Assembly (NCBI GenBank): GCA_964023205.1
Contig: OZ026837.1
Span: 8,102,088-8,166,087, forward strand
DNA: 64,000 bases
Origin: Lutraria lutraria
Taxonomy: Eukaryota; Mollusca; Bivalvia; Venerida; Mactridae
Direction: 5' to 3'
Positions 37,541 to 53,624 of this stretch are shown here, in pieces. The notes under the pieces are model-generated. The model was not told where the DNA came from and searched no databases. It saw only the letters and a program-made list of their open reading frames with translations. The stretch's first letter is position 1. The number at the start of each line of letters is the position of its first letter. Both the position numbers and the translations under genes were made by a program.

Positions 37541-37560
37541 TATTGTAGATATGCTTTGTA

Positions 37561-38044: not shown

Positions 38045-38082
38045 GGCCCTGAAAAGGGCCGTTGGTGGTCCTGAAAAGGACC
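38045..38082 (-). terminator. Tandem histone-type 3' stem-loops (internal)
   Basis: Minus strand: GGTCCTTTTCAGGACC (38082-38067) then GGCCCTTTTCAGGGCC (38060-38045), both perfect 6-bp stems with TTTC loops and CCAAC 5' flanks. The first begins 19 nt after the stop of the minus-strand gene at 38102. AGAAAGAAT follows 12 nt after the second (38032-38024), like a histone downstream element. The pair is a near copy of the TIR pair but lies 1.5 kb inside the element. Confidence 0.75.
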
Positions 38083-38101
38083 GTTGGTGCTTGTATGGGG
38101 A

Positions 38102-38425
38102 TTAATGGCGTTGACCGCATCTCCCCATACAAGCGGGACACCACTTGTCCCATTTCTGGACATCCTTGGGGTCCGGTGTAGGTTGATAGAGGTTCGAAGG
38201 AACCTCTATTAACTCATCTTCCCAGTTCTCTGGGGTTGATTCTTGAGGGGTATCCCCCCAGTCCTCTTCCCCAGAGCAGACCTCAACCTCCTCCGCGAAC
38301 TGTTTTCCCTCTCTCAGGGTCTTCACCTCCAGCCTTAACTCTTCTAGCTGCATCTCCAGTTGTTCAATATACCGCCCTAAGGCGGCATATTTTCTCTTAA
38401 TAATATTAACTGTACGTTGAGACAT
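38102..38425 (-). CDS. Polinton small coiled-coil, Cys-ended acidic protein
   Basis: A 107-residue protein. Residues about 8-40 form a heptad-like coiled coil (YIEQLEMQLEELRLEVKTL), the middle is acidic (EEVEVCSGEEDWGD, ENWEDELIEV), and the end is WCPACMGRCGQRH, with a CxxC and a third Cys suggestive of metal binding or dimer bonds. The ATG at 38425 is the only good start. The gene has its own 3' end signal of tandem histone-type hairpins. Its coiled coil plus Cys-rich end resembles the organisation of the rightmost gene (52893-53360), though I cannot show homology. Function unknown. Confidence 0.75.
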   Translation of the reverse strand: MSQRTVNIIKRKYAALGRYIEQLEMQLEELRLEVKTLREGKQFAEEVEVCSGEEDWGDTPQESTPENWEDELIEVPSNLYQPTPDPKDVQKWDKWCPACMGRCGQRH

Positions 38426-38489
38426 CTTGATACAGAATGAAATTAGATCAAGGCAAGGTCACTGACTCTCATATGATACAAGGACTCTG

Positions 38490-38570
38490 ATTGGTCCATT
38501 TTAACGGTATTTCATTGGTCCATTTTAACGGTATTTCATTGGTCTATTTTACTGGCATTTCATTGGTCTG
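38490..38570. promoter_or_regulatory. Four CCAAT-type motifs in a repeated promoter block
   Basis: ATTGGTC (inverted CCAAT) occurs four times at about 22-bp spacing in units like ATTGGTCCATTTTAACGGTATTTC. The block lies between divergent genes starting at 38425 (minus) and 38632 (plus). CCAAT boxes bind NF-Y, which commonly drives histone and other S-phase promoters. Role inferred. Confidence 0.5.
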
Positions 38571-38631
38571 TTGTTTTCTAGGTCAGTGTTTTTCTCATGT
38601 TCCATAGCTCATTTATGTTTCATGATTCAAC

Positions 38632-38859
38632 ATGGGCAACTGCTTGAAAAGTTCTTCTGATGAACCTGATGAGTTACAAGAAGATGTTTGGGTGGTCAAG
38701 ATGGGTAATTTGTACCCAGACTTGTCTGAATTTCAAGATACTTGTGTTGTCAAGATGGATATCAAGATGGGTAATTTATACCCTGACCTTGGCATGTATT
38801 ATGATGAGGATTTGAGAGCCAACTATTGGCGGTACTTATTTCTTGCAGAAATGCAATAA
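38632..38859 (+). CDS. Small predicted lipid-anchored protein with two YPDL late-domain motifs
   Basis: A 75-residue protein with an ATG start. The N-terminus MGNCLKSSS has Gly2, a following Ser cluster and Cys4, the pattern of an N-myristoylated and palmitoylated membrane anchor. Residues 28-31 and 50-53 are YPDL, each inside a KMGNLYPDL duplication; YPX(n)L is the motif by which retroviral Gag proteins recruit the ESCRT factor ALIX for budding. The remainder is acidic. The stop is followed after 10 nt by a single histone-type hairpin. I infer a role at membranes, for example virion egress; no family is recognised. Confidence 0.7.
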   Translation: MGNCLKSSSDEPDELQEDVWVVKMGNLYPDLSEFQDTCVVKMDIKMGNLYPDLGMYYDEDLRANYWRYLFLAEMQ

Positions 38860-38869
38860 ATTACCCAAC

Positions 38870-38885
38870 GGCCCTTATTAGGGCC
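38870..38885 (+). terminator. Single histone-type 3' stem-loop
   Basis: GGCCCTTATTAGGGCC: perfect 6-bp stem with loop TATT (T at loop positions 1 and 3, as in the histone consensus), 5' flank CCCAAC and 3' flank ACCA. It starts 10 nt after the stop of the gene at 38632-38859. An AATAAA overlaps the stop codon (38855-38860), so both 3' end pathways might be possible. No clear purine block follows at the usual distance. Confidence 0.6.
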
Positions 38886-39078
38886 ACCATATGTGTTAGA
38901 TTCGTTTTATATCTCGAGCAAAGACAAAAGCATATTACATTGTCTATCATTTTATTTTTGAAAACATTTATAAAGTACAACAAAGTACAACACAATACAA
39001 CTCACTTAGTCTCCAATTTAAGTCTATACACAATTGTCCAACACATTGTCCAACACATTGTCCAACACATTGTCTGGA

Positions 39079-39510
39079 TTACACAAAGTCACTCACAGTT
39101 TTTGTTGGATTCTTTTTGTATTTACGTTTTTTCTTACTCTGTTCTGCGTCCTGTAGATCGACCTGTTCACCTTGTTTCTTAGGACAGTCTGCGATGAAAT
39201 GTCCTTGTTCATGACAATAAAAACATTCATTTTTATCGACGTGTTCACCTTGTTTCTTAGGACAGTCTGCGATGAAATGTCCTTGTTCATGACAATAAAA
39301 ACATTCATTTTTATCGACGGTTTCCGTACAGCTGGTAGAATAATGCCCTTTCTTTCCACAACGATAACACTTGATATGATCCCATGTTACATTTTTCTGT
39401 CCACAGAGCTGATCCGCTAAGTTGTTAAGCTCTTTAATTTTCTTCTTTAATGAATACATCAAAGTTTGATCTCGGTTCTCTTCAACTTGGTTCATTTTAG
39501 GATCGCTCAT
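39079..39510 (-). CDS. Polinton zinc-knuckle (CCHC) protein
   Basis: A 143-residue protein on the minus strand with its own TATA box 34 bp or more upstream. An N-terminal helical part (LKKKIKELNNLADQL) precedes three CX2CX4HX4C zinc knuckles at residues 48-61, 70-83 and 96-109. The last two are a perfect 26-residue tandem duplication (VDKNECFYCHEQGHF). The tail is Lys-rich (KKKRKYKKN). Such knuckles bind single-stranded nucleic acid, as in retroviral nucleocapsid. The role in this element is unknown; with the lipid-anchored late-domain neighbour it recalls parts of a Gag protein. Confidence 0.8.
   Translation of the reverse strand: MSDPKMNQVEENRDQTLMYSLKKKIKELNNLADQLCGQKNVTWDHIKCYRCGKKGHYSTSCTETVDKNECFYCHEQGHFIADCPKKQGEHVDKNECFYCHEQGHFIADCPKKQGEQVDLQDAEQSKKKRKYKKNPTKTVSDFV
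39170..39326 (-). repeat. 78-bp in-frame tandem duplication
   Basis: The coding segment for the second and third zinc knuckles is duplicated head to tail with no visible differences, so the duplication is recent. Confidence 0.85.
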
Positions 39511-39543
39511 GTTGAAATGATAAAAAACGGACGGAGCGTACGT

Positions 39544-39590
39544 CTTTTATAGAGTGTCACGCGTTGTGACCTTGAACCCGAACTATAAAA
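39544..39590. promoter_or_regulatory. Divergent TATA promoters for zinc-knuckle gene and PolB
   Basis: CTTTTATA (39544-39551) is TATAAAAG on the minus strand, 34 bp before the zinc-knuckle ATG. TATAAAA (39584-39590) on the plus strand lies 30 bp before the PolB ATG at 39620. Both spacings allow start sites just before the ATGs. Confidence 0.6.
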
Positions 39591-39619
39591 AACGACGGAG
39601 AAGTTCTAAGATCATAATC

Positions 39620-42600
39620 ATGTCAGATACCGACAGTACTAGTGGTGAGGATGAACCTCCAACTAAACGAAGCAAGGTTGAGCCTGTGCGCGACTATTAT
39701 GACATACAGTCACGCATGGAAAGAAAGTCAAGAAAATTCAAGACTCAATCTAGAGTATATGATGTGACATTTCAGCCGTATAATCAATCGTTTGAATTTA
39801 CAAACAGGTTGTTTAATGATATGATGGATCAGCTCTACAAGAGATGTGAAGTGAAGTCGAATGATCGAGTTCGAGTATCTATTCTACATCCTGACTTGGA
39901 CTTTGGAATACATGTTCCGTTTAATAGGGCATCTCGTATTAGTGGAGATACATTATTGGATGAAATTGAACGTGTGGCACAAAGTAACCGTCAATTTAAA
40001 ATTCATGATGGGGCGGCACAGATGGAAATTACGCATATTGCTATGCCACAGGGATCCGGAAAGAAAACGTTCAAGGCATCAAACTTATTCAGTATGCGGA
40101 AGTCAAAGACAAGTGTTGTGTGTATTGACAATAGTAAGGACTCTATGTGTTTAGCTAGATCGATTGTGGTAGGACGGTGTAAAGTACATGAAAATCAAAC
40201 CCCAGAATGGAAAAAACGATGGGGTTATATACGTCACTCTAAGAAAAATCTTCAAAAATACGAAGCTGAAGCATTGTTGAAGCAAGTGGGTATTTCATCG
40301 GATCAGTCGTGCGGTATAGAAGAATACCAAAAACTACAGGACTATCTCTATCCAGGCTATGTGATTAAAATCCATCCACAACATTATGGAAGTGAATTGT
40401 TATTCAAACCACCTGCTATGACTGAAAAAAGTCGTGTGATTCATATCTTTCACCATGATAATCATTATGACTGTATTGTATCCATCACCGGATTTCTCGG
40501 ACGGGGTTATTATTGTGAATGGTGTGATGTCGGTTATGATCACCGTGAAGGACATCAGTGTAGCCATATTTGTCAGTGTTATGCTCACACCCTGTGCCCA
40601 GCAGGACAATCTATAAGATGTCCGGATTGTCGTCGCCTATTCCAGAGTCAGGCATGTTTTGACAATCATAAAACAAAAACGGGAAAACAACGTAAAACCA
40701 TTTGTGAATCCGTATGGAATTGTAAGAAATGTGGGCAAAAGGTGATTGGAACGAAACGGAGTCACGTTTGCCCAGGGACAAAGAAATGCAGGTGTTGTAA
40801 AGCCATAGTAGGACCAGATCATGACTGTTACATTCCAACGTATGAACCACCCGATAGAAAACAACCAGAAGTACCATTCATCTTTTTTGATTTTGAATGT
40901 CGTTTTGATTCTGGAGAACATATCCCTAATTTTTGTGTGGCTCAACGTGCTTGTGGTGACTGTATGTGTAAGTCAGTGAAAGCTCCATGTGAGTATTGTG
41001 AAGAGGTGAATGAAGCCAGACAAATGACATTCCGTGGTGAAAATACGTTACAACAATTCTGTACTTGGCTATTCCTCCCTACCCATCGAGGATCGACAGT
41101 GATAGCCCACAATGCTCAAGGCTATGACGCTCAGTTTATTCTTAGATATGTGGTTACTCAGGGGACGGCGAAACCCCAGTTGATTATGAATGGTAGTAAA
41201 ATCATTCAATTGAGAGTGCATGGAATACGCATGATTGACTCCCTCAGTTTCCTGAGTATGCCTCTCTCCTATTTTCCCAATACATTTGGACTGACCGAGT
41301 TAGCCAAAGGATGGTTTCCATTCTATGCAAACACCTTGGCGTATCAAGATTATGTGGGACCTTATTTGCCGCTACACTTTTACAAACCGGATAGTATGAA
41401 ACCAGAGCGACGTGAAGAGTTTTTAATCTGGTACAATGAAAGAAAAGGTGACGTATTTGATTTTCAAAAGGAAATGGAGAAATACTGTCAATCGGATGTG
41501 GACATTTTAAGACGCGGGTGTGGAGAATTTCGTCAACAATTATTGGAAAGTGATCAAATAGATCCATTTACTGAAGCTACCACATTAGCTCAAGTGTGTA
41601 ACAAAGCCTGGCGCAAAAATTCCATGCCACCTCATAGTTTAGCCGTGATTTCGGATGCCGGATATCCCAATAAAACCCGGTATTCCATGAAAGGCATACG
41701 TTGGCTACAAACGATGGCTGTCACCGAAGAGATACATATTCGGCATGCCTTGAATAACAAAGGCGAAGTCAAAATTGGACCTTATTACGTGGATGGCTAT
41801 TGTCAAGAGACCAACACCGTGTATGAATTCATGGGATGTTGGTACCATGGGTGCCCCACCTGTTTTCCTAACCGAAGTACCATTAATCCGTATACTTTGA
41901 GAAGCATGCAACAGGCCTATCACGATACGTATAAACGACTGGAGTCTTTGAAAGAACAGGGGTACCCTGTTGTGGTCATGTGGGAATGTGAATTTGATCA
42001 GCGTTGTCAAAAGGATCCTGCCTATAAGACAAGAGTGGAACGATTCTATCATGGTCAAGAACCGATACAACCCAGGGAAGCTTTGTTCGGAGGTCGTACG
42101 AATGCCATCCGACTGTATCATGAAGTAGACAACGACCAAGAAATCAAATATGTGGATATTTGTTCTCTCTATCCGTATGTGAACAAGTACAGGGCTTATC
42201 CGATAGGCCATCCAGTGATCATGAGTCAAGAACAAATTGATCAACACCATATTGAGAAATACAAAGGACTGGTTAAATGCCGTGTTCTACCCCCGCAAGA
42301 TTTATGGATGCCTGTCTTACCCATACACTGCAATAGCAAAATGGTGTTTACGCTATGTCGTACTTGTGCTGAGAAGGAGATGGATTATTGTACACATTCA
42401 CCGTATGAACGGTTCTTGTATGGCACATGGACTCATGTTGAATTGGCTAAAGCTATTGCTTTAGGCTATCAAGTATCAAAAGTGTATCATGTATGGCACT
42501 GGGATGAATGGAGTACGGACGTCTATCGGCAATACATTGACAAATACTTGAAAATGAAACAAGAGGCTAGTGGATATCCTCCAGGGGTGGATACGGAAGA

Positions 42601-42949
42601 AGCTCAAGATAAATTTAAACAAGATTATTTTGAAGCAGAAGGAATTCGTTTGCAACAGGTGGAGAAAAATCCAGGAAAACGAGCTTTTGCCAAAACCATG
42701 CTGAATTGTCTCTGGGGTAAAAATGCTCAAACCAACCTCTTGCCTAAAACAGAGTATGTTCATCGATTGGACCAGTTCTACGGAATACTGAACGATCCTA
42801 AAAAGTCTGTGAAATACGCAGAGTGTTTTGATCATGATGAATTCATGTTAATGAATTATACTGATGAATCGGACAAAGCAGACCCTCATTCATCAGCCAA
42901 TCCTGTGGTGGCTTCATTTGTGACGGCTTATGCTCGATTAGAACTGTAG
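39620..42949 (+). CDS. POLB: Polinton DNA polymerase B, N-terminal 1,109 residues (frameshifted)
   Basis: Replicates the element; family B polymerase of the protein-primed type. I use the ATG at 39620, 30 bp after a TATA box; upstream sequence in frame has only GTG. A Cys/His-rich region spans residues about 295-410. Exonuclease motifs: Exo I DFE at 424-426, Exo II NAQGYD at 498-503, Exo III YCQSD at 622-626. An inserted region at about 710-790 (VDGY, EFMGCWYHGCP) resembles a restriction-endonuclease-like fold seen in related polymerases. Motif A is DICSLYP from 846; motif B KTMLNCLWG from 1025. A TAG at 42947-42949 ends the frame before motif C, which continues in another frame. Confidence 0.93.
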   Translation: MSDTDSTSGEDEPPTKRSKVEPVRDYYDIQSRMERKSRKFKTQSRVYDVTFQPYNQSFEFTNRLFNDMMDQLYKRCEVKSNDRVRVSILHPDLDFGIHVPFNRASRISGDTLLDEIERVAQSNRQFKIHDGAAQMEITHIAMPQGSGKKTFKASNLFSMRKSKTSVVCIDNSKDSMCLARSIVVGRCKVHENQTPEWKKRWGYIRHSKKNLQKYEAEALLKQVGISSDQSCGIEEYQKLQDYLYPGYVIKIHPQHYGSELLFKPPAMTEKSRVIHIFHHDNHYDCIVSITGFLGRGYYCEWCDVGYDHREGHQCSHICQCYAHTLCPAGQSIRCPDCRRLFQSQACFDNHKTKTGKQRKTICESVWNCKKCGQKVIGTKRSHVCPGTKKCRCCKAIVGPDHDCYIPTYEPPDRKQPEVPFIFFDFECRFDSGEHIPNFCVAQRACGDCMCKSVKAPCEYCEEVNEARQMTFRGENTLQQFCTWLFLPTHRGSTVIAHNAQGYDAQFILRYVVTQGTAKPQLIMNGSKIIQLRVHGIRMIDSLSFLSMPLSYFPNTFGLTELAKGWFPFYANTLAYQDYVGPYLPLHFYKPDSMKPERREEFLIWYNERKGDVFDFQKEMEKYCQSDVDILRRGCGEFRQQLLESDQIDPFTEATTLAQVCNKAWRKNSMPPHSLAVISDAGYPNKTRYSMKGIRWLQTMAVTEEIHIRHALNNKGEVKIGPYYVDGYCQETNTVYEFMGCWYHGCPTCFPNRSTINPYTLRSMQQAYHDTYKRLESLKEQGYPVVVMWECEFDQRCQKDPAYKTRVERFYHGQEPIQPREALFGGRTNAIRLYHEVDNDQEIKYVDICSLYPYVNKYRAYPIGHPVIMSQEQIDQHHIEKYKGLVKCRVLPPQDLWMPVLPIHCNSKMVFTLCRTCAEKEMDYCTHSPYERFLYGTWTHVELAKAIALGYQVSKVYHVWHWDEWSTDVYRQYIDKYLKMKQEASGYPPGVDTEEAQDKFKQDYFEAEGIRLQQVEKNPGKRAFAKTMLNCLWGKNAQTNLLPKTEYVHRLDQFYGILNDPKKSVKYAECFDHDEFMLMNYTDESDKADPHSSANPVVASFVTAYARLEL

Positions 42950-43410
42950 AAGTGCTTGAACCTCTAGGAAAGAGAGTACTGTATTTTGACACAGACAGTT
43001 GTATGTACATTCATGACCCTGATGGCTATAATGTTCCTATTATCTCCAGTCGATTGGGAAAATGGACAGATGAGGTACCAAAGGGTCGTATTGTGAGATA
43101 TGTCGCTTTAGGTCCAAAGAACTATGGCTATGAATACATTGAAAACGGTGAACTCCATCAAAAATGCAAAGTGAAAGGCATTACGTTAGACTACAATGCC
43201 ACTCAACAAGTGAATTTCAATACGATGGTGGATTGTGTGAAAGACAGACATAATTATTCGACCGTAGTTGAATATGCTTCTCGGATTAAACGTCATAAGG
43301 ACAGAACCGTGACCAGTGAGAAACAAGTCAAAACATTTCGTTCGGTATATACCAAACGTATTGTGGTCGAGAATCATATGACTGTGCCTTATGGTTATCT
43401 ACATGACTGA
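42950..43410 (+). pseudogene. POLB: PolB C-terminal part in a shifted frame (motif C)
   Basis: The frame used at 42952-43410 is not the frame of the upstream PolB part. It carries motif C (DTDS, 42988-42999) with a YIHDPDGYN-like neighbour and the thumb region, ending at TGA 43408-43410. Protein similarity runs without a gap across the junction, so loss of about one base near 42946-42951 best explains the break. Without this part the polymerase lacks the second catalytic aspartate motif and should be inactive. An assembly error is possible. Confidence 0.9.
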
Positions 43411-43470
43411 CCTTGACCTTTGAGCTAGAGGCCTAGAACAAGTCATCTAAAATTCATTATTCATAAAGAC

Positions 43471-43635
43471 ATGGATTGGATACCCTTACTACCGATAGAG
43501 CTGAGACTTAAAATTTATCGTTATGTCATATGGGCTAACGCTAAAACATGGAAGATGGAGTTAGTGCACACAAAATGTCATGGGCTACTCATAATGCTAT
43601 ACATAGCTTACAACATACAAATCATCGACGGATAG
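43471..43635 (+). CDS. Short F-box-like ORF, possibly 5' part of next gene
   Basis: A 54-codon frame opens MDWIPLLPIELRLKIYRYV, which resembles the start of an F-box (LPxELxxxIYRYV); F-box proteins link targets to SCF ubiquitin ligase. After about residue 28 it loses similarity and runs into TAG. It overlaps the start of the 43548-44105 frame. One reading is that the two are a single gene broken by an indel near 43545-43560; the other is a real overlap. Neighbours are PolB and small unknown genes. Confidence 0.45.
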   Translation: MDWIPLLPIELRLKIYRYVIWANAKTWKMELVHTKCHGLLIMLYIAYNIQIIDG

Positions 43636-44105
43636 AGAGACTGTTGAAGGATGTAGGTGATCGCCAGGACTTGTCATTCAACCAAAAATTACCGATTCTA
43701 CGAAAACTGAATGTGGTACAACAAAGCTTAGATCGTATGTTATCTACGACATGGGATTTTTTAATCCACGATGCTAATTTGAGCGACGTATCTGCCTTAG
43801 CTAACAATTTTCGTTCTACCCCCAATGTGATATGGTTCAGTATGGCTGAAGAGGACAATGGGAGATCTCACCCCGGATGGCGTCCGTATTCACAGTTTAA
43901 AATACGTGGTATCATGGTATTTAAGAGACAGGTACCGTTCACTCATGTTATTCATATTCTACAGTATCGTGCCGTGTTCTATAAATTAAGGCATCGCTTA
44001 AGAGAAGTCAAAGACGAGATTGAAGCCGTTCATGCGAATCGACCTAGAATAGTGATTTGTTCAGGAAATATTCAATTATGGTTAAACCATCTAGACGATT
44101 TATAA
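43548..44105 (+). CDS. Polinton protein of unknown function
   Basis: A 185-residue frame with an ATG start, alpha-helical in character (NHRRIERLLKDVGD, YRAVFYKLRHRLREVKDEIE), without a recognisable domain. Sequence before the ATG in this frame has stops, so the start is either this ATG or a frameshifted continuation of the F-box-like ORF at 43471. Its end overlaps the next ORF by 28 bp. Function unknown. Confidence 0.6.
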   Translation: MEDGVSAHKMSWATHNAIHSLQHTNHRRIERLLKDVGDRQDLSFNQKLPILRKLNVVQQSLDRMLSTTWDFLIHDANLSDVSALANNFRSTPNVIWFSMAEEDNGRSHPGWRPYSQFKIRGIMVFKRQVPFTHVIHILQYRAVFYKLRHRLREVKDEIEAVHANRPRIVICSGNIQLWLNHLDDL

Positions 44106-44365
44106 GTTTATATTACATTTTGGACTTTGAGCTGTATACGGATACGTTATACAGTATTGTACAAGATGACCTTGTCAAGGTCAAGGACATTCGCGCGTGG
44201 ATTCTGAATCCTCACACGTTTGAACTATTTAGACAGATGATTCGTGATGCTATGATCAGTGCACACTTAGACTTGAAAGCTATCCATCGAGACGATTGGA
44301 ATACTTATGTATGTAACGATAGAGTGATTCACACGATTCAGGAATGGAACAGTTTGATATTATGA
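44078..44365 (+). CDS. Small Polinton protein, unknown
   Basis: A 95-residue frame from the ATG at 44078 (MVKPSRRFISLYYILDFELY); a longer reading would need a TTG start. It overlaps the previous frame by 28 bp and the next by 22 bp. Aromatic-rich N-terminus, then helical. No family recognised. Confidence 0.5.
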   Translation: MVKPSRRFISLYYILDFELYTDTLYSIVQDDLVKVKDIRAWILNPHTFELFRQMIRDAMISAHLDLKAIHRDDWNTYVCNDRVIHTIQEWNSLIL

Positions 44366-44706: not shown

Positions 44707-44723
44707 ACTTGTTATTGTACACA

Positions 44724-44735
44724 AATAAATAAAAT
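44724..44735 (+). terminator. Poly(A) signal after PolB-proximal gene cluster
   Basis: CAAATAAATAAAATG contains two overlapping AATAAA hexamers downstream of the gene ending at 44706. This contrasts with the hairpin-type 3' ends of the outer genes. Confidence 0.5.
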
Positions 44736-44773
44736 GTTTTTCTTCCAATAGTGTTAGTTGTGATTTTCACGTC

Positions 44774-45421
44774 ATGGAGTCCAGTTTACTTTTTAAGCAT
44801 CCTTGCAATATGTTTATCGCAGGCCCTAGTGGCTCTGGTAAAACACAATTCGTAAAAAAGGTGTTGGAATACAAATCAGATTTGTTTCAAGTAGTACCTG
44901 AGCGTATTGTATGGTGTTACAAAGAATGGCAAGTAGCCTATGCACAATTACAAGAACAAGAACCTAGTATTCGGTTCATACAGGGGATACCTGACGAGGA
45001 TGAAGAGATAGTAGAGGATACATCCATTCCTCATTTAATTATATTTGATGACATGCTTGGTGATAAAGATGAAGAGAAAATCAAATTATGGTTTACACGA
45101 AAAGGTCACCATCGTAATGCTAGTGTGATCTACATTACACAAAACATGTTTCAACAATCGAAAGCCAGTCGTACCCTGAGTTTAAATGCACATTACATGA
45201 TCTTATTTCAAAACACAAGAGATAAAGGACAAATCAAAGTGTTGGCGAATCAAATTCAATTGCCACACTTGTTACCCGCTTATCAAGATGCTATCTCTAC
45301 ACCTCATGGGTATTTAGTGATTGACTTTCACCCTCAAACACCAGACAGTTATCGGTTAAGAACAGATATTTTTCATCACTGGATCACTGGAGAAAAACGT
45401 GGGCCAGTTGTGTATATATAA
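44774..45421 (+). CDS. ATP: Genome-packaging ATPase, FtsK/HerA (A32-like) type
   Basis: A 215-residue protein with Walker A GPSGSGKT at residues 17-24, Walker B HLIIFDDM with acids at 92-93, and a YITQN sensor-like segment downstream. This is the signature of the A32-type ATPase that pumps DNA into capsids in adintoviruses, Polintons and nucleocytoplasmic large DNA viruses. The length is typical for Polintons. It opens the rightward morphogenesis block and ends just before a TATA box for the next gene. Confidence 0.93.
   Translation: MESSLLFKHPCNMFIAGPSGSGKTQFVKKVLEYKSDLFQVVPERIVWCYKEWQVAYAQLQEQEPSIRFIQGIPDEDEEIVEDTSIPHLIIFDDMLGDKDEEKIKLWFTRKGHHRNASVIYITQNMFQQSKASRTLSLNAHYMILFQNTRDKGQIKVLANQIQLPHLLPAYQDAISTPHGYLVIDFHPQTPDSYRLRTDIFHHWITGEKRGPVVYI
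45411..45421 (+). promoter_or_regulatory. TATA box before the H1-like gene
   Basis: GTATATATAAA overlaps the ATPase stop codon and lies about 40 bp before the ATG at 45456. Confidence 0.5.
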
Positions 45422-47790: not shown

Positions 47791-47795
47791 ACAAC

Positions 47796-48869
47796 ATGAA
47801 CAAAAAGGTAGACAGTCTGTTACATCAGATTTATTATGATCCCCATCATCCGGCTGGTTTTGGTGGGGTAGAACGTCTTACTACAGCAGCTCGAACTCAA
47901 CTGAAATCCATTACACCAAGTCAAGTACGATCCTGGTTGAAGGGACAAAAGACCTATACCCTGCACAAACCTATCCGTAGGGCATTCTCGAGACGGAAAA
48001 CGATTGTGGGTGGTATTGATCATCAATGGCAAGCTGATTTGGCAGACATGCAATCCTTGGCTCAGTACAACACCCCTTATCGATATTTGTTGTGTGTCAT
48101 TGACGTGTTTTCAAAATATGCTTGGGTCGTTCCCCTCAAGGATAAAACGGGGCTCACATTGGTGGAAGCGTTTCGCTCTATTCTTAAAACGAGACAACCT
48201 AAAGCGTTGCAAACCGATAAAGGAACAGAATTCAAGAATCAAAGGTTTCAACAGTTTTTAGACAAAGTAGGGATTCATTATTTTACGACTGAAAACCCAG
48301 AAACGAAGGCTAGTATAGTGGAACGTTTTCAACGAACCTTAAAATCACGCATGTGGAAATACTTTACGCATCATAAAACACGAAGGTATATTCAGGTATT
48401 GTCTGATCTCGTGCATGCCTATAATCATCGTGTTCATCGTAGTATACACATGGCACCCGTATCCGTAAATGAGAATAACGAATCTCAAGTGGCCTTGACC
48501 TTGTATGGAAAATCAAGAAAGAAAGCGTCGACGACTCTTCATGTGGGAGATATTGTTCGTATCAATAAAACAAAACGTACATTTGATAAAGGTTATCTAC
48601 CCAACTGGACCACTGAACTGTTTAAAGTGATCCAAGTCAAAAAGACCTCTCCTGCTACTGTGAAATTGACTGATTTAGACGGAGAACCCATACTGGGTTC
48701 GTTTTATTTCTCTGAAGTACAGGTTATAAAAGATGATGCTATCTATGAAATTGAATCAGTGCTCGCCCATCGCCAGAGTAAGGTAGACGGAAGACGAGAA
48801 ATTAAAGTACATTGGAAAGGTTATCCTTCGAAATTTGACAGTTGGATTCCCGAATCCCATCTCGTTTGA
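47796..48869 (+). CDS. INT: Retroviral-type integrase with C-terminal chromodomain
   Basis: A 357-residue protein from the ATG at 47796 (upstream in-frame GTG rejected). The core has the DDE triad D81 (WQADLADM), D141 (LQTDKGTEF) and E176 (SIVERFQ), with D141 and E176 35 residues apart, as in retroviral integrases. An SH3-like region follows (HVGDIVRI). The end from about 48745 is a chromodomain (YEIESVLAHR, VHWKGYPSKFDSWIPESHL), which may guide integration to modified chromatin. The exact 6-bp TSD fits this enzyme. All catalytic residues are present, so this copy may still be active. Confidence 0.95.
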   Translation: MNKKVDSLLHQIYYDPHHPAGFGGVERLTTAARTQLKSITPSQVRSWLKGQKTYTLHKPIRRAFSRRKTIVGGIDHQWQADLADMQSLAQYNTPYRYLLCVIDVFSKYAWVVPLKDKTGLTLVEAFRSILKTRQPKALQTDKGTEFKNQRFQQFLDKVGIHYFTTENPETKASIVERFQRTLKSRMWKYFTHHKTRRYIQVLSDLVHAYNHRVHRSIHMAPVSVNENNESQVALTLYGKSRKKASTTLHVGDIVRINKTKRTFDKGYLPNWTTELFKVIQVKKTSPATVKLTDLDGEPILGSFYFSEVQVIKDDAIYEIESVLAHRQSKVDGRREIKVHWKGYPSKFDSWIPESHLV

Positions 48870-48884
48870 ACTAATAAATACATC

Positions 48885-49130
48885 ATGTCTCAAACCGATA
48901 CGGCCAGTGTGGTAGTGACTGCCTCAGAGCAAGCCAAATTGTGTGAACCCAAAAATAAGGTCACTTTTTTTGCACAAATTGTAGTGGTATTTATTATTAT
49001 TACCGTATCGCTATTTAATTTGTGTTTTCAACGACCCGATCGGGAATTGTGGCTTCTGCTTTTAAGTAGTTCTCTAGGTTATATTCTACCGAACCCCTCC
49101 TTGAAATTCAATAAACCTAAATCAACATGA
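48885..49130 (+). CDS. Small Polinton membrane protein
   Basis: An 81-residue protein with one clear transmembrane segment (FFAQIVVVFIIITVSLFNL, residues about 28-46) and a second hydrophobic stretch (LWLLLLSSSLGYILP). The tail is PNPSLKFNKPK. The gene starts 15 bp after the integrase stop and its TGA overlaps the next ATG. Membrane role unknown; an inner-membrane or virion-assembly role is possible. Confidence 0.7.
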   Translation: MSQTDTASVVVTASEQAKLCEPKNKVTFFAQIVVVFIIITVSLFNLCFQRPDRELWLLLLSSSLGYILPNPSLKFNKPKST

Positions 49131-49969
49131 GTTCGTTTTACATCACACTCATGAGTGATAGCTCTATGGATTTATTCCCAGACAATACGCAATGTTGTTT
49201 TCGTACCAAACTGACAAAACCCATCCATCTCAATAAACAAGACTGGGAAATTGCCTTAGTGGAAATGATTGTTCCTAGTCAGGTCATTAATGTCACTGAA
49301 GAAGAGAGACATTTCTGCATTGTCACACACGATCCTGTCCTGGGTAAGGCCTTTGAATCCTTAATTTCCTATTGTACTCTCCCCAATAAAGAAGAAAAAG
49401 GTGTACGACTTTGTATTCCTGTAGGAACTTATGTCACACCCCAACATTTGATCGAGACGATTGACTTTACCGTAAAAGATAATCTGGGTAAAATATTTAG
49501 ACAGAAAGGCCTTCGATTTACCATGGGTTTTTCAGGACAAAGTAAACGCGCAAAACTGGACAGTTCGGATCAACTAGGCATTCAGTTTCATCCTCACATG
49601 TTTATTAAACTGGGTGGAGCTCCTGATAGTTCTCCTACCATCTTTTTAAAAGACACTCCAGATCCGTTTCCTCATGGCGTAGATATTAACATGGGTCATA
49701 ATCATTTGTTTGTTTATTCTGACCTCGCGGCTTATACCTATTTGGGAAACATAGAAGCCCCCATCTTACGTGTAGCTCCATTTGATCCGAGAACGAAAGC
49801 AGGAACTAACCCCCATATTCATTTCGAGTTCTTGAATTTACACTATGTACCACTGGCTAAAGCCGACTTTGACACCATCACTATCCATATAAGGGGTGAC
49901 ACTGGCCAGACTATTCAGTTTATTCATGGGAAGTCTATGGTGAAACTACACCTACGTCAAAGACAATGA
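49127..49969 (+). CDS. mCP: Minor capsid (penton-like) protein, single jelly roll
   Basis: A 280-residue protein with typical Polinton penton features by recall of the family: N-terminal FYITLMSDSSMDLFPDNT and KLTKPIHL segments, a WEIALVEM strand, and late LNLHYVPL and FDTITIHIRGDTG strands. Such proteins form the pentameric vertices of the capsid. Starts within the previous gene's stop (ATGA) and ends within the next gene's start (ATGA), so three genes are chained. Confidence 0.85.
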   Translation: MSSFYITLMSDSSMDLFPDNTQCCFRTKLTKPIHLNKQDWEIALVEMIVPSQVINVTEEERHFCIVTHDPVLGKAFESLISYCTLPNKEEKGVRLCIPVGTYVTPQHLIETIDFTVKDNLGKIFRQKGLRFTMGFSGQSKRAKLDSSDQLGIQFHPHMFIKLGGAPDSSPTIFLKDTPDPFPHGVDINMGHNHLFVYSDLAAYTYLGNIEAPILRVAPFDPRTKAGTNPHIHFEFLNLHYVPLAKADFDTITIHIRGDTGQTIQFIHGKSMVKLHLRQRQ

Positions 49970-50331
49970 TACCTACTTACCAAGGTCAACCTCGACAATA
50001 TGGACACGGACTTGGATCCATGTTTAAGAAAGCCATGAAAAGAATTATACCTTTACTGAATCCATTTGTGAAATCTGGAGTTCGCACCTTGAAAAAAGAA
50101 GGACTCCAACAAGGAAAAGCCGCTATCAAAGATATCTTGACAGGATCAAACGCTAAACAAGTAATACGAAAACGTGGAGCCTCTGTATTAAAAGATGTGG
50201 GTGAATCCTTGCTACGTGCTGTGGCCAGCCCTAAAAGACGTATAAAGAGCAAACCAGTCAAGAAAAGACCTCATTCGAAACTTCATCATCGCCGAGTTAA
50301 GCAGGCCAGACCTCTTGATATTTTCGATTAA
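49966..50331 (+). CDS. Basic minor virion protein, adenovirus core-like
   Basis: A 121-residue very basic protein with an N-terminal RQYGHGLGSMFKKAMKRI segment, an amphipathic middle (FVKSGVRTLKKEGLQQGKAA) and a Lys/Arg/His tail (KRRIKSKPVKKRPHSKLHHR). Polintons usually encode such a protein between the penton and hexon genes. It probably binds the packaged DNA or the inner capsid; that is inference. Confidence 0.7.
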   Translation: MIPTYQGQPRQYGHGLGSMFKKAMKRIIPLLNPFVKSGVRTLKKEGLQQGKAAIKDILTGSNAKQVIRKRGASVLKDVGESLLRAVASPKRRIKSKPVKKRPHSKLHHRRVKQARPLDIFD

Positions 50332-50333
50332 TC

Positions 50334-51632
50334 ATGATGCAACACGGTTCCTGTGAATGTAGTAAGACAGAGTTGGATGTGTCTGTTGTGCCACCTACCA
50401 TGACAGCCATGCAAGAAGGTCAATGGACTGAGCATTATCCCATTTCTGCTCTGGACAATAATGCTCCGATTGAATTTGTGATTCCTGCACAGACAGAAAA
50501 ATGGACAGATCTGAATCAATCTTACCTGTACCTAAAACTCAAAATTATACAGGCAGATGGTACAGACCTAGCGGCCGACAGTGAAATTGCTACCGTCAAC
50601 AATTTCTTTCACAGCATGTTCTCAAGCATTGATGTGTATCTGAATAATAAACTGATCACCAGCAATGCGGACACGTATGCCTATCGGGCATACATAGAAA
50701 ATTTACTCTCCTTCACCTCAAGCTGTAAAGACACTCAACTTCAGGCGCTAGAGTTATGGGGTGAAGACACCCCTGGTCATATGAACACCCACGCACATGA
50801 CGGGGGTAACCTGGGTTATATTGAGAGACGTGCTCGTGTCCATCAAAGTCGTGTGGTGGAACTATGTGGACGGCTTCATTTGGATCTGATGATGCAAGAT
50901 AAATATTTACCCAATGGTATGGAAATACGCTTAAGGCTAAACAAAGCGTCACCTCAATTCTGTCTCATGGGTGCCGCACCGGCTAAAATCAAGTTTCTAG
51001 AAGCAGGATTCAATGTAAGAACAGTAGATTTACTGCCAGTGGTAGCCAATCAACTCAATCAACAGATTGCTCAACATAACATGAAAATCCCCATCCGACG
51101 AACTGAAGTAAAAACATTTACGATTCCTAACGGTCAACGATCCAAGATTGAAGATCATTTATTTCAAGGTCAATTGCCAAAACGTCTTATCATCGGTATG
51201 GTAAGAAATGGAGACATGAATGGAGACATGGCTACCAACCCCTTTGATTTCCGTCATTTTACACTGAATCATCTAGAAGTCAGCATTGACGGAAAAAGTA
51301 TTCATAACAAAGCGTTTCAACCCAATTTTGAAACGGGAGAAGTTCTAAGATCCTACATGTCACTCTATCAAGCGACAGGAGCTCTTGGTCTCAATCGTTC
51401 ATTTGGATTGAGCATGAATGATTATCGGAACGGATACACACTCTGGGGGTTGGACTTGACAGCAGATCAAGGTTGCGAGGAAGGTCAACTCCATCCTATA
51501 AAAACGGGCAATCTGAGATTGGAATTTCACTTTGGAACAGCACTTGCACAAGCCATCAACGTGATTGTATTTGCGGAATACGACAATCAAATTGAAATCA
51601 ATCAATTCAGAGAAGTACTTCTAGATTATTAA
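50334..51632 (+). CDS. MCP: Major capsid protein, double jelly roll
   Basis: A 432-residue protein starting 2 bp after the previous stop. Recognisable Polinton hexon features include WTEHYPISALDNNAPIEFVI near the N-terminus, LNQSYLYLKLKI, NNFFHSMFSSIDVYLNNK and AYRAYIENLL, and the C-terminal NVIVFAEYDNQIEI. It would form pseudohexameric trimers in an icosahedral shell. The frame is intact and of normal length, so capsid production by this copy is plausible. Confidence 0.95.
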   Translation: MMQHGSCECSKTELDVSVVPPTMTAMQEGQWTEHYPISALDNNAPIEFVIPAQTEKWTDLNQSYLYLKLKIIQADGTDLAADSEIATVNNFFHSMFSSIDVYLNNKLITSNADTYAYRAYIENLLSFTSSCKDTQLQALELWGEDTPGHMNTHAHDGGNLGYIERRARVHQSRVVELCGRLHLDLMMQDKYLPNGMEIRLRLNKASPQFCLMGAAPAKIKFLEAGFNVRTVDLLPVVANQLNQQIAQHNMKIPIRRTEVKTFTIPNGQRSKIEDHLFQGQLPKRLIIGMVRNGDMNGDMATNPFDFRHFTLNHLEVSIDGKSIHNKAFQPNFETGEVLRSYMSLYQATGALGLNRSFGLSMNDYRNGYTLWGLDLTADQGCEEGQLHPIKTGNLRLEFHFGTALAQAINVIVFAEYDNQIEINQFREVLLDY

Positions 51633-51633
51633 G

Positions 51634-52098
51634 ATGGAAGACATGGATATTGAACACCTGGAAAAAGGACAAGATTACGAAATGAAGTTATTGGCGTATC
51701 CTTGTTGTACAAGTTCAAAGACGGACTTTTTACAAGAGTGCTTGAATCATCACGTCACAGAAGCACTCCAATCTTTAATTTATAATCAAGTGCATAAAGA
51801 CTGTTATGGTTGTCGAGTGAATCATCCTAGTCAAGTACAACATGTACTCTGCTTATACACGAATACGGAAGAGTGGACAGAACTTTACATTCAAAAAGCG
51901 ATTCAACGTTTGGACGTGTTCAAGGTCATGGAAAAGTGGTATCCTGAATTAGTGACCTTGACCGATAGTGAAAAAGGAGACGCGTGTCGATTATGGATTC
52001 AGTTTAAAGAAGAACTCACTCAGAATCAGTTCATAGATCAATGGATCAGTGTTTGGGCTGAACGTGTCAACAGAAATTGGCATTATGGAGACGAATGA
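51634..52098 (+). CDS. Conserved Polinton Cys/His protein, unknown
   Basis: A 154-residue protein, starting directly after the MCP stop. It contains CYGCRVNHPSQVQHVLC, a Cys/His cluster (CxxC...HPSQ...H...C) that recurs in Polinton proteins near the protease as I recall and may bind zinc. The rest is helical. Its end overlaps the protease start by 14 bp. Confidence 0.7.
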   Translation: MEDMDIEHLEKGQDYEMKLLAYPCCTSSKTDFLQECLNHHVTEALQSLIYNQVHKDCYGCRVNHPSQVQHVLCLYTNTEEWTELYIQKAIQRLDVFKVMEKWYPELVTLTDSEKGDACRLWIQFKEELTQNQFIDQWISVWAERVNRNWHYGDE

Positions 52099-52675
52099 AC
52101 TACAATACCTATTAGATCATTCACCGTTATTAAAACCACTACGTGCACGTGTTTGTGCTAAAGATCAATTACCTTCAGAGAAACCGCATGACGTGAAAGC
52201 CTATATTGTGAATACCCATAACGGGAATCAACCTGGAGAACACTGGGTGGCTCTTTATTTAAAAGACAATAAAGCAGTGTACTTTGATTCCTACGGATTA
52301 CCACCTTTCGAAGAGATTCTATCCTTTGTGAAAAAACATGCCAACAAAACTTATCTGTGGAATGCCATGAGAATACAAGGCGATATGTTACCGGTGTGTG
52401 GTGTGTATTGTCTATTCGCTTTGGATTTTATCTCACGTGAATGTGACTTGAACCAGATACTGTTAACCCGATTCAAACCGGACATGTATGGAAAAAATGA
52501 CACTTATGTGACGCATTGGTTTCAACAATATTATGGTACTTATTACATGCATGCTCAATATGTGAATAAATGTGGACAAAAGTGTTTTGCTCAACGTAAC
52601 TCTAGACCAGAAGGTCACAGACGTTTGTATCATAGTATCATACATAGAAATACAACTCTTTATGGTGATCATTAA
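52085..52675 (+). CDS. PRO: Adenain-like cysteine protease
   Basis: A 196-residue protein from the ATG at 52085 (a GTG-led extension is rejected). Catalytic residues: His53 (GEHWVAL), Asp68 (YFDSYG), Gln98 (RIQGD) and Cys105 (PVCGVYC); the Gln-to-Cys distance of seven equals that in adenovirus protease. It should process capsid precursors during maturation. An AATAAA follows near 52730. Last gene of the morphogenesis block. Confidence 0.9.
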   Translation: METNELQYLLDHSPLLKPLRARVCAKDQLPSEKPHDVKAYIVNTHNGNQPGEHWVALYLKDNKAVYFDSYGLPPFEEILSFVKKHANKTYLWNAMRIQGDMLPVCGVYCLFALDFISRECDLNQILLTRFKPDMYGKNDTYVTHWFQQYYGTYYMHAQYVNKCGQKCFAQRNSRPEGHRRLYHSIIHRNTTLYGDH

Positions 52676-52725
52676 ACAATGTTACTGTTTCATAAAATGT
52701 TTCATGTAGTTTCTTGTTTCTTGTT

Positions 52726-52737
52726 ACAAAAATAAAA
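52726..52737 (+). terminator. Poly(A) signal after protease gene
   Basis: AAAAATAAAAGT about 55 bp downstream of the protease stop contains AATAAA. It marks the probable 3' end of the capsid/protease block and separates it from the next promoter. Confidence 0.5.
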
Positions 52738-52810
52738 GTTTAGAGAACTAGGTGTCTGTTGTCTTTTTTCTAAGTTCATAAAAATCAAGCTCCGCACATG
52801 CATCGGCGCG

Positions 52811-52866
52811 TGACGCCATCCAACCCTAGGGTGACGTCATCCAAGCAATATGACGTCATCCAACCA
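52811..52866 (+). promoter_or_regulatory. Three CRE-type repeats upstream of the last gene
   Basis: GTGACGTCATCCAAG, ATGACGTCATCCAAC and a degenerate TGACGCCATCCAAC sit in tandem, about 20 bp apart. TGACGTCA is the palindromic CREB/ATF site. They precede the gene at 52893 by 30-80 bp. Host ATF/CREB control is inferred. Confidence 0.6.
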
Positions 52867-52892
52867 CGAAAGTGGGCCATACAATACTTACA

Positions 52893-53360
52893 ATGCCTCA
52901 TTTCATTCTGAGAACTCAAACACTCAAGATGGAGGCTTTATTCAATGAACTCAAAACAGCAAAACAACTGACTGAAAAACAGAGCAGGGTATGGCGTTCA
53001 ATCAGTCGCTTAGCGGCTAGCATTGTTAGAAAAAGGGAACGTGATCTTCAAACCATTGGTGAGACTTTGAATACCATTGAAACCAATCGATTTCATCATA
53101 GAGAAGAATTATCTCAAATGCGAGAGCAATTTCGAGATCAAGTCAGAGAAAGGCAGCGAGATGCTCGGGAACGAACGGCGAATAGACAACGGGAACAAGA
53201 AGAAGAGCATTGGCGCTCTACCGCTCAAGTTGAGTACACGGAACAACCACCAGAACAGGAATGGTCCTGTGGGGATCTAACATGCAGGCTCTGCTATCCC
53301 CTACCAGACTGCAAATGTGAACTATGTACCCAACCAGATCAGTCAGCAAACACGGTTTAA
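52893..53360 (+). CDS. Rightmost Polinton gene: coiled coil with Cys-rich end
   Basis: A 155-residue protein from the ATG at 52893. A long Glu/Arg-rich coiled coil (EELSQMREQFRDQVRERQRD) leads to a Cys-rich end (CGDLTCRLCY and CKCELC), a possible zinc site. The start is preceded by a tandem CRE promoter. The stop at 53358-53360 is followed after 12 nt by tandem histone-type stem-loops inside the right TIR. Function unknown; being at the edge, with its own promoter, it may be a regulatory gene expressed early. Confidence 0.75.
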   Translation: MPHFILRTQTLKMEALFNELKTAKQLTEKQSRVWRSISRLAASIVRKRERDLQTIGETLNTIETNRFHHREELSQMREQFRDQVRERQRDARERTANRQREQEEEHWRSTAQVEYTEQPPEQEWSCGDLTCRLCYPLPDCKCELCTQPDQSANTV

Positions 53361-53368
53361 AAAACCAC

Positions 53369-53624
53369 CAACGGTCCTTTTCAGGGCCACCAACGGCCCT
53401 TTTCAGGGCCACCATGTCTTTTCGAAAGAAAATTCTCTCATTGTCTAAGTCTATACAGTACAAATAACAATACACACACAGTACCCAGAACATTCCTAAA
53501 ATTCAATTCATACTATTTTGGGGTACAACATTGATTTCCAATTTGCCCCAATTTGTCACAATTTTGAAAACTTCTGGGTACCAATTACGTTGATTTGGTA
53601 CCCAGGGTATCGCCGTATACTACT
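53369..53624 (-). repeat. Polinton right terminal inverted repeat, 256 bp
   Basis: Inverted partner of 36330-36585, equal in length. Its inner end lies 8 nt after the last gene's stop codon, so the 3' UTR and 3' end signal of that gene are inside the TIR. Confidence 0.95.
53373..53410 (+). terminator. Tandem histone-type 3' stem-loops (right TIR)
   Basis: GGTCCTTTTCAGGGCC (53373-53388) and GGCCCTTTTCAGGGCC (53395-53410) have 6-bp stems (one G-U pair in the first, perfect in the second), TTTC loops, CCAAC/ACCAAC 5' flanks and ACC(A) 3' flanks. GAAAGAAAA lies 13 nt beyond (53424-53432), the position of the histone downstream element. The first hairpin starts 12 nt after the stop codon, as compact as a histone 3' UTR. 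Confidence 0.75.

What the first reader, a model, noticed from the sequence alone, without database searches (positions are those of the whole stretch)
38045..53432. Polinton genes end in histone-mRNA-type 3' stem-loops
Seen in sequence: seven hairpins at four sites (36544-36581, 38045-38082, 38870-38885, 53373-53410). All have 6-bp stems of the form GGYCCT...AGGRCC with a 4-nt loop (TTTC in six, TATT in one), CCAAC-type 5' flanks and mostly ACCA-type 3' flanks. All lie on the coding strand 10-46 nt after the stop of the adjacent gene. Three sites are followed 12-13 nt later by a GAAAGA-type block. Established knowledge: this is the layout of replication-dependent histone mRNA 3' ends (stem-loop bound by SLBP, purine downstream element bound by U7 snRNP). 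Inference: the element borrows the host histone 3' end pathway, which would limit these transcripts to S phase and make them poly(A)-minus. I know of no report of this for Polintons but cannot check the literature.
Basis: partly seen in the sequence, partly recalled or inferred. Interest (0 to 1): 0.92.

Follow-up and report, generated by a model that had tools for sequence, protein, structure and literature searches.

The report
Polinton genes with histone-style ends
A virus-like mobile DNA element, whose presumed capsid gene occurs in at least 97 near-identical copies in what is likely a bivalve genome, carries the hairpin that ends histone messages just after four of its genes, and so it likely borrows the cell's histone machinery to finish those messages, which would tie them to DNA replication and leave them without a poly(A) tail.

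Summary
All seven hairpins lie on the coding strand after the stops of four genes of a Polinton (36330-53624, 6-bp target duplication). Of 4227 Rfam families only Histone3 matches these sites (35.8, 31.7, 31.0, 27.6 bits; one above the 34-bit gathering score), and it matches nothing else in 64 kb. A script finds 7 such hairpins in the element, 0 in the rest of the window, and a mean of 0.01 in surrogates.

The window's own genome (728.5 Mb) was searchable. Sibling copies keep the hairpins: 19 of 19 readable capsid-selected copies at the right end (20 fetched), 17 of 17 after the 107-aa gene. Hairpin and GAAAGA block outlast the non-coding DNA behind them. Stem pair 3 is C-G or U-A. Host histone genes use the same two stems; a host SLBP gene exists. 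Four distant relatives show none.

Best reading: SLBP/U7 processing, giving S-phase, poly(A)-minus mRNAs. This is inferred; there are no RNA data. Caveats: the outer two sites are TIR copies, the g75 site lacks the GAAAGA block, 15 of 19 ORFs have no hairpin, and U7 was not found.

The parts
36324..36329 (.). target-site duplication CACACC, left
   Evidence: read; same six bases at 53625-53630
36330..36585 (+). left terminal inverted repeat; inner edge holds the left hairpins
   Evidence: 256 nt, 99% complementary to 53369-53624
36544..36559 (-). histone-type hairpin 2 of the left-end site (one G-U pair)
   Evidence: RF00032, 27.6 bits for 36518-36564
36566..36581 (-). histone-type hairpin 1 of the left-end site (one G-U pair)
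   Evidence: 46 nt after the stop of 36628-37344
36525..36532 (-). GAAAGA-type block (HDE-like) of the left-end site; approximate span
   Evidence: present in 16 of 18 aligned rows
36628..37344 (-). left-end gene (Lend), 238 aa, no Pfam family at E<=0.01
38045..38060 (-). histone-type hairpin 2 after g107
   Evidence: RF00032 31.7 bits for 38020-38065
38067..38082 (-). histone-type hairpin 1 after g107 (GGTCCT/AGGACC, the U-A form)
   Evidence: 19 nt after the stop
38024..38033 (-). AGAAAGAA block (HDE-like) of the g107 site; approximate span
   Evidence: GAAAGA present in 18 of 18 aligned rows
38102..38425 (-). g107 gene, 107 aa, coiled-coil-like with C-terminal cysteines (by eye)
38632..38859 (+). 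g75 gene, 75 aa, begins MGNCL
38870..38885 (+). single histone-type hairpin after g75, loop TATT, no GAAAGA block
   Evidence: RF00032 31.0 bits for 38865-38910
39079..39510 (-). zinc-knuckle gene, no hairpin, poly(A)-type hexamer 123 nt after the stop (a contrast within the element)
39620..42949 (+). family B DNA polymerase (viral/organellar type)
   Evidence: PF03175 E 2.1e-37
44774..45421 (+). A32-like ATPase
   Evidence: PF04665 E 2.4e-8
47796..48869 (+). retroviral-type integrase with chromodomain
   Evidence: PF00665 and PF00385
50334..51632 (+). presumed major capsid protein (family named F54H12.2-like in Mercenaria and oysters)
   Evidence: the capsid role is recalled knowledge, not a call
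52893..53360 (+). right-end gene (Rend), 155 aa, coiled-coil-like with C-terminal cysteines (by eye)
53373..53388 (+). histone-type hairpin 1 of the right-end site (one G-U pair)
   Evidence: 12 nt after the stop
53395..53410 (+). histone-type hairpin 2 of the right-end site
   Evidence: RF00032 35.8 bits, above gathering 34, for 53390-53436
53424..53431 (+). GAAAGA-type block (HDE-like), 13 nt after the stem
   Evidence: present in 20 of 21 aligned rows
53369..53624 (+). right terminal inverted repeat
53625..53630 (.). target-site duplication CACACC, right
   Evidence: read

Best explanation
This Polinton carries the histone-mRNA 3' end signal (stem-loop, and at three of four sites a GAAAGA block) after four of its genes, and the host's histone pathway likely cuts these transcripts there. 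Inferred steps: RNA polymerase II reads through the stop and the hairpins. The host SLBP would bind the hairpin, probably either of the two where they are tandem. U7 snRNP would pair with the GAAAGA block, and cleavage would fall a few nt after the last stem, giving mRNAs without poly(A). Their stability and translation would then follow SLBP, that is, S phase, when a DNA element with its own polymerase has nucleotides and replication factors at hand. Shown here: the signal, its strand and place, its conservation across sibling copies, the same stems in the host's histone genes, and a host SLBP gene. Not shown: any RNA end, any binding, U7 pairing, cell-cycle timing.
For: Rfam Histone3 is the only family hit at the four sites. 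In histone orientation all 7 hairpins are on the coding strand after stops. 7 in the element against a mean of 0.01 in 300 surrogates. Capsid-selected copies: 20 hand-picked from the 97, 1 withheld; 19 of 19 readable have the right-end hairpin(s) and GAAAGAA, 16 with two hairpins and 3 with one. Gene-anchored, overlapping loci counted once: g107 17 of 17 copies with at least one full stem (both full in 16), g75 16 of 17 full and 1 with a C-A mismatch, Lend 17 of 17 and Rend 20 of 20 with at least one full stem. Mean pairwise identity (Lend, g107, g75, Rend): hairpins with flanks 0.913, 0.974, 0.996, 0.870; +4 to +35 nt 0.960, 0.987, 0.964, 0.954; +35 to +135 nt 0.776, 0.764, 0.886, 0.749. Stem pair 3 alternates C-G and U-A. 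All 126 ungapped column-aligned loops (6 gapped rows dropped) keep T at positions 1 and 3: TTTC 107, TATT 18, TCTC 1. Host histone repeat: four core genes GGCCCT.TTTT.AGGGCC, H1 GGTCCT.TTTC.AGGACC, the same two stems. Host SLBP RNA-binding domain on two exons. Host H2A has GAAAG 13 nt after its stem. No AATAAA/ATTAAA within 300 nt after Lend, g107 or Rend in the window.
Against: No RNA data. Host U7 not found (the control rang nowhere, so uninformative). The g75 site has no GAAAGA block (0 of 18 rows) and in 5 of 18 rows has AATAAA/ATTAAA near the stop; so has 1 of 18 Lend rows. 15 of 19 ORFs have no hairpin of their own. The window's right-end pair folds slightly better as one nested hairpin than as two tandem ones (-20.5 against -19.1 kcal/mol). 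0 of 4 contigs with distant relatives carry the signal. Lend and Rend copies were found through the hairpin itself, so only the g107, g75 and capsid-selected counts are free of that bias. At Lend and Rend the hairpins are less conserved than the last 200 coding bases (0.913 against 0.975; 0.870 against 0.911). The host core histones differ from the element in loop (TTTT) and flanks (AAAAC, ACAAA and the like), and their downstream elements are not uniform.
Confidence: 0.8

Rival explanations
1. The hairpins are virus-type termination/polyadenylation palindromes, as in Mimivirus, Marseilleviridae and the Sputnik virophage, recognised by a viral RNase III-type enzyme.
For: Hairpins sit just after stops; [quoted passage not shown]
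Against: Noumeavirus has 226 palindromes for 452 predicted proteins; here 4 of 19 ORFs carry one nearly fixed sequence that matches the histone model, including the 5' CCAA and 3' ACC flanks and the loop. The 19 ORFs show no RNase III or capping family in Pfam. The host's own histone genes have the same stems.
Confidence: 0.05
2. The hairpins act at the DNA level, for example in replication or packaging from the terminal inverted repeats, and lie near gene ends by accident.
For: Two of the four sites are at the inner edge of the TIR.
Against: The g107 and g75 sites lie outside the TIR, 1.5-2.3 kb inward, and are kept (17 of 17 with at least one full stem; 16 of 17 full). The loop and flank orientation follows the transcribed strand at every site, which a DNA palindrome would not need.
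Confidence: 0.04
3. The hairpins bind SLBP but do not direct cleavage: the transcripts are polyadenylated further on, and SLBP only tunes their stability, export or translation, or is titrated by the element.
For: The g75 site lacks a GAAAGA block; tandem hairpins suggest extra SLBP binding; SLBP has been reported to aid SARS-CoV-2 frameshifting, and that paper says SLBP expression promotes HCMV replication (abstract start; passages, PMC12166091).
Against: At the other three sites the +4 to +35 stretch with GAAAGA is at least as conserved as the hairpin (0.954-0.987), which a binding-only site would not need; no poly(A) hexamer lies within 300 nt of those stops in the window.
Confidence: 0.07
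4. The hairpins are a passenger: one captured histone 3' end, duplicated inside the element, without present function.
For: The sites resemble each other over 27-68 nt, and the family is young (the 97 best of 473 first-look capsid candidates are all 99% or more identical).
Against: In diverged copies the hairpin and block outlast the non-coding DNA behind them; pair 3 changes on both sides; loops differ between sites (TTTC, TATT) yet keep U1 and U3.
Confidence: 0.04

Closest known systems
Replication-dependent animal histone mRNA 3' end (Rfam RF00032, SLBP, U7 snRNP)
   Same: 6-bp stem GGYCCT/AGGRCC, 4-nt loop with U1 and U3, CCAA and ACC flanks as in the Rfam consensus, purine block 12-13 nt on at three of four sites, just after the stop; same two stems as this host's histone genes.
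   Different: Genes are not histones but those of a mobile DNA element; three of four sites carry two hairpins in tandem; the host core-histone loops are TTTT and their flanks AAAAC/AC, the element's mostly TTTC and CCAAC/ACCA.
Polinton/Maverick and adintovirus elements
   Same: PolB, rve integrase with chromodomain, A32-like ATPase, presumed capsid protein, TIRs beginning AG, 6-bp target duplication.
   Different: Histone-type 3' ends; not seen on four contigs with distant relatives; 0 papers of the held library hold both 'histone stem-loop' and 'polinton'.
Sputnik virophage carrying the mimivirus hairpin poly(A) signal
   Same: A small DNA virus takes the 3' end signal of the machinery that it depends on (PMC6723459, passages).
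   Different: There the lender is a giant virus and ends are polyadenylated; here the lender would be the animal's histone pathway.
SARS-CoV-2 and SLBP; Histone3 listed in coronaviruses
   Same: A virus RNA linked to SLBP (PMC12166091, passages), and a Histone3 annotation in a virus genome (PMC7786107, passages).
   Different: There SLBP acts on frameshifting, and the Histone3 match is 14.7 bits inside the nsp3 coding region, far below the 34-bit gathering score; no 3' end role is claimed in the passages seen.

Membership tests
Histone 3' UTR stem-loop (RF00032) | covariance-model score at or above the gathering score (34 bits) | tested here: inconclusive
   1 of 4 window sites at 35.8; others 31.7, 31.0, 27.6. 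In the genome 44 matches at E<=1e-3 from 75 scored candidates; 39 lie at ends of sibling Polintons and 37 of these are over the cut-off.
Histone 3' UTR stem-loop (RF00032) | six-pair stem, four-nt loop, U at loop 1 and 3, CCAA/ACC flanks | tested here: met
   Stem and loop: 7 of 7 window hairpins (three with one G-U pair). Flanks: CCAA 6 of 7, ACC 6 of 7. 126 of 126 ungapped aligned hairpins keep T at loop 1 and 3. That U1 and U3 matter is recalled.
Histone 3' UTR stem-loop (RF00032) | on the coding strand shortly after the stop | tested here: met
   10-46 nt to the first stem, four genes.
Histone mRNA 3' processing | purine-rich downstream element | tested here: met
   Three of four window sites; rows with GAAAGA: Lend 16/18, g107 18/18, Rend 20/21, g75 0/18; GAAAGAA in 19/19 readable capsid-selected copies. 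Not met at g75.
Histone mRNA 3' processing | complementarity of that element to the host U7 snRNA | tested here: inconclusive
   RF00066 found nothing (65 of 192,230 candidates scored) and its control rang nowhere; a pattern search did not complete.
Histone mRNA 3' processing | host has SLBP | tested here: met
   PF15247 60.9 and 34.5 bits on two adjacent stretches of C10.
Histone mRNA 3' processing | poly(A)-minus end about 5 nt after the stem; SLBP binding | not testable with these tools
   No RNA data.
Polinton/Maverick | PolB, rve integrase, A32-like ATPase | tested here: met
Polinton/Maverick | terminal inverted repeats and 5-6 bp target duplication | tested here: met
   256-nt TIR; CACACC on both sides.
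Polinton/Maverick | capsid proteins and adenovirus-type protease | tested here: inconclusive
   Capsid-like ORF has 384 relatives at E<=1e-3 but no Pfam family; no protease family hit; no fold was predicted.
Giant-virus hairpin rule | many gene-end palindromes, processed by a viral RNase III | tested here: not met
   4 of 19 ORFs, one nearly fixed sequence; no RNase III family among the 19 ORFs scanned.

The most novel reading that the evidence does not exclude
This is a DNA virus or transposon whose own messages are made as histone messages: poly(A)-free, SLBP-bound and locked to S phase by the host's U7/SLBP pathway, with doubled hairpins as a virus-specific elaboration. Multiplying in a genome while bypassing the poly(A) pathway for these genes would be a way of living that no virus known to me has shown.
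Probability: 0.6. Interest if true: 0.93.

Novelty: new variant of a known kind. Interest (0 to 1): 0.87.

Why it matters
Histone-type 3' ends are generally regarded as the mark of replication-dependent histone genes (recalled). A mobile DNA element that has taken them up would show how a virus can tie its expression to host DNA replication by an RNA signal and not by a promoter, and would give a natural test of what the signal does away from histone genes. It would also mean that such transcripts are missed in poly(A)-selected RNA-seq. The claim is directly testable in the host animal with total-RNA 3' end mapping.

Tried and rejected
Chance palindromes: rejected by cmscan E-values and surrogates. 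DNA-level TIR role: rejected as the main explanation because two sites lie outside the TIR. Giant-virus hairpin rule: read about in passages and set aside on sequence and distribution.

Relatives in IMG/VR: PolB, capsid alignment, exact hairpin 24-mer and a two-member PolB alignment all gave none. A looser hairpin pattern gave 2 contigs (L005, L006), in both cases inside an ORF, with phage-like genes around as I read them; taken as chance. Bacterial MAG contigs gave 4 relatives (L001-L004, capsid 38-41%): no Histone3 match at E<=1 and no histone-like hairpin by script; not all gene ends are covered on these contigs.

Column-wise tally shows 12 five-pair rows at hairpin 1 of the TIR sites; 2 are real mismatches also seen, the other 10 (C-A at pair 3) fit misalignment of copies whose hairpins are spaced differently, since the ungapped gene-anchored scan shows full stems in the copies concerned. 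A shared CTCTCAT motif downstream of host H1 and H4 and of two element sites is weak: shuffles reaching the observed score were 187, 11, 40 and 497 of 1000 for words of 6, 7, 8 and 9. LxCxE motifs: none in 19 ORFs. Genome searches with a U7-like pattern and with the hairpin pattern did not complete. In one search and my first frame for g107 was off by one base; the right coordinates are 38102-38425.


Full report
What is there. Bases 36330-53624 are a Polinton of 17,295 bp: 256-nt terminal inverted repeats, 99% complementary, and the same six bases CACACC outside each end (read). Pfam finds a family B polymerase (39620-42949), an A32-like ATPase (44774-45421), a retroviral-type integrase with a chromodomain (47796-48869) and a zinc-knuckle protein. 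The ORF at 50334-51632 has 384 relatives at E<=1e-3; among the 120 listed, the named ones are from Mercenaria, Saccostrea, Ostrea and Crassostrea, plus one from a Thiodiazotropha MAG. That it is the major capsid protein is recalled knowledge of this family. The host is therefore likely a bivalve; the genome itself is unnamed (728.5 Mb, 71 contigs).

The hairpins. Seven hairpins stand at the places given, each with six pairs and a four-base loop, in histone orientation on the coding strand after the stops of four genes. Rfam's Histone3 model is the only one of 4227 families to match these sites: 35.8 bits (53390-53436, above the 34-bit gathering score), 31.7, 31.0 and 27.6. In the whole 64 kb, at E up to 10, Histone3 hits nothing else. 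A scripted test with fixed criteria finds 7 in the element, 0 in the rest of the window, and a mean of 0.01 in 300 Markov-1 surrogates.

Independence. The left-end and right-end sites are the two copies of the TIR. The site after the 107-aa gene is 87% alike to them over 68 nt, and the site after the 75-aa gene shares 27-36 nt with others. So the four sites are about three semi-independent ones. Conservation among sibling copies is the stronger evidence.

Sibling copies. A search of the window's own genome with Histone3 gave 44 matches at E<=1e-3 (75 of 131,090 first-look candidates were scored, so a lower bound). I fetched or received stretches around all 44: 39 lie at ends of sibling Polintons and 5 in an unrelated tandem array. 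None of the 44 is a histone gene. Anchoring on the genes, with overlapping loci of one copy counted once, at least one full six-pair hairpin follows the gene in 17 of 17 copies (left end), 17 of 17 (107-aa gene; both hairpins full in 16), 16 of 17 (75-aa gene; the 17th has one C-A mismatch; one further 39-nt edge hit was not readable and is left out) and 20 of 20 (right end). Left- and right-end copies were chosen by the hairpin, so these two counts are biased. To remove that bias I hand-picked 20 of the 97 copies found by the capsid protein alone and read 261 bases at the expected place. One is withheld; 19 of 19 readable ones have the hairpin (16 two, 3 one), all on the coding strand, with GAAAGAA behind.

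Conservation. In alignments of 17, 17, 17 and 20 copies plus the window (order: left end, 107-aa, 75-aa, right end), mean pairwise identity is 0.913, 0.974, 0.996 and 0.870 for hairpins with flanks and 0.960, 0.987, 0.964 and 0.954 for the next 31 nt, against 0.776, 0.764, 0.886 and 0.749 at 35-135 nt. At 135-235 nt it is 0.669, 0.580, 0.757 and 0.631, but at the two ends about a fifth of that stretch is host DNA beyond the element. Between stop and hairpin it is 0.501, 0.936, 0.958 and 0.630 (41, 13, 5 and 7 nt), and in the last 200 coding bases 0.975, 0.940, 0.918 and 0.911; so the hairpins are kept about as well as coding DNA, a little less at the ends. Stem pair 3 is C-G in some hairpins and U-A in others. 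Of 132 aligned hairpins 6 have gaps; the other 126 all keep T at loop positions 1 and 3. From recalled knowledge these are the loop bases that SLBP contacts.

The host's own histone genes. One 6.9-kb repeat of the host's histone array (found by PF00125) was read. The genes I recognise as H3, H4, H2B and H2A end in GGCCCT.TTTT.AGGGCC, and H1 ends in GGTCCT.TTTC.AGGACC. These are the same two stems as in the element, with other loops and flanks in the core genes. H2A has GAAAG 13 nt after the stem, like the element's block. A paper on the clam Lucina pectinata reports palindromes close to the stop in its histone mRNAs and purine-rich elements in some of them (PMC6210712, one passage). The host has an SLBP RNA-binding domain on two stretches of C10. 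U7 was not found, but the control rang nowhere, so this says nothing.

Against. The 75-aa site has no GAAAGA block and, in 5 of 18 rows, has AATAAA/ATTAAA close to the stop. Fifteen of 19 ORFs, the polymerase and capsid genes among them, have no hairpin of their own; they may share the right-end hairpin through nested transcripts or use other ends. Seven of these 15, the zinc-knuckle gene among them, have a poly(A)-type hexamer within 300 nt of the stop. The tandem pair of the window's right end folds slightly better as one nested hairpin (-20.5 against -19.1 kcal/mol). The commonest pair, in 30 of the loci scanned (overlapping ones counted), folds as two tandem hairpins. Four MAG contigs with relatives of the capsid protein (two from a symbiont of Escarpia, one of Bathymodiolus, one Breoghania; 38-41% identity) show none.

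Reading. The signal is histone-type in sequence, place, strand and conservation, and its stems match the host's own. That it works through SLBP and U7, gives poly(A)-minus ends and ties these genes to S phase is inferred. The tandem arrangement is unlike the host's single hairpins. One use would be a spare site for SLBP or a second stop for trimming; this is speculation.

Literature. Full-text searches of the held open library: 'histone stem-loop' + 'polinton', 0 papers; 'histone stem-loop' + 'virus' + 'SLBP' + 'viral mRNA', 1, an mRNA-design paper judged from the listing; 'adintovirus' + 'histone', 5, one read in passages without such a signal; two of polinton, bivalve, Mercenaria, 671, 15 listed, none opened; histone genes with stem-loop, purine-rich element, mussel, 6, one read in a passage; SLBP with virus terms, 60, 15 listed, one read in passages; 'polinton' + 'hairpin' + 'polyadenylation', 7, two read in passages; histone + stem-loop + transposable element + U7 snRNP + non-polyadenylated, 0; 'histone stem-loop' + 'transposon', 2, neither on this by its listing; SLBP, viral genome, histone-like, U7 snRNA, 2, one read in passages. 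Subscription papers and preprints are largely missing, so novelty is stated only against these searches.

Noticed in passing
L015-L017 (G000 C12:22874500-22889000 and 22912000-22918000): A tandem array of about 1.5-kb units encodes a 109-aa non-histone protein (MPSRIQSL...), each followed by a histone-type hairpin (GGCCCT.TTTC.AGAGCC, one C-A mismatch), with an AAGAAAA block behind it in some units; 13 of 13 hairpins read alike. The protein has 227 relatives at E<=1e-3; among the 120 listed, those with an organism name are from Mya and Pinctada. Perhaps a second non-histone user of the signal, likely a host gene.
   Followed up: partly
G000, whole genome: The 97 best of 473 first-look capsid candidates are all 99-100% identical to the window's protein, 96 without a stop: a young and large Polinton burst.
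   Followed up: partly
L058 H4 and H1 downstream regions; window 53432-53445 and about 38005-38020: CTCTCAT followed by TTGTC/TTGTTC about 27-40 nt after the stem is shared by host H4 and H1 and by two element sites; for 7-mers 11 of 1000 shuffles do as well, for other word lengths more. Possibly a bivalve histone downstream element.
   Followed up: partly
36544-36581, 38045-38082, 53373-53410 and sibling copies: In the commonest tandem pair the first stem uses U-A and the second C-G at pair 3, so that the two hairpins pair less well with each other; most other variants scanned have near-equal or lower energy in a nested fold.
   Followed up: partly
38102-38425 and 52893-53360: The 107-aa and right-end proteins both look coiled-coil-like with cysteine pairs near the C-terminus (by eye); the 75-aa protein begins MGNCL, a possible lipid-anchor motif (recalled).
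   Followed up: no
37550-37830: Tandem repeats with ACTATCACAGCAATTTGAA...CTGTACACATTA units lie upstream of the left-end gene, perhaps a promoter or origin.
   Followed up: no
17558-22228 and 61649-63970: A reverse-transcriptase element with an endonuclease-type domain and a large EGF-repeat ORF flank the Polinton, which fits an animal chromosome.
   Followed up: no
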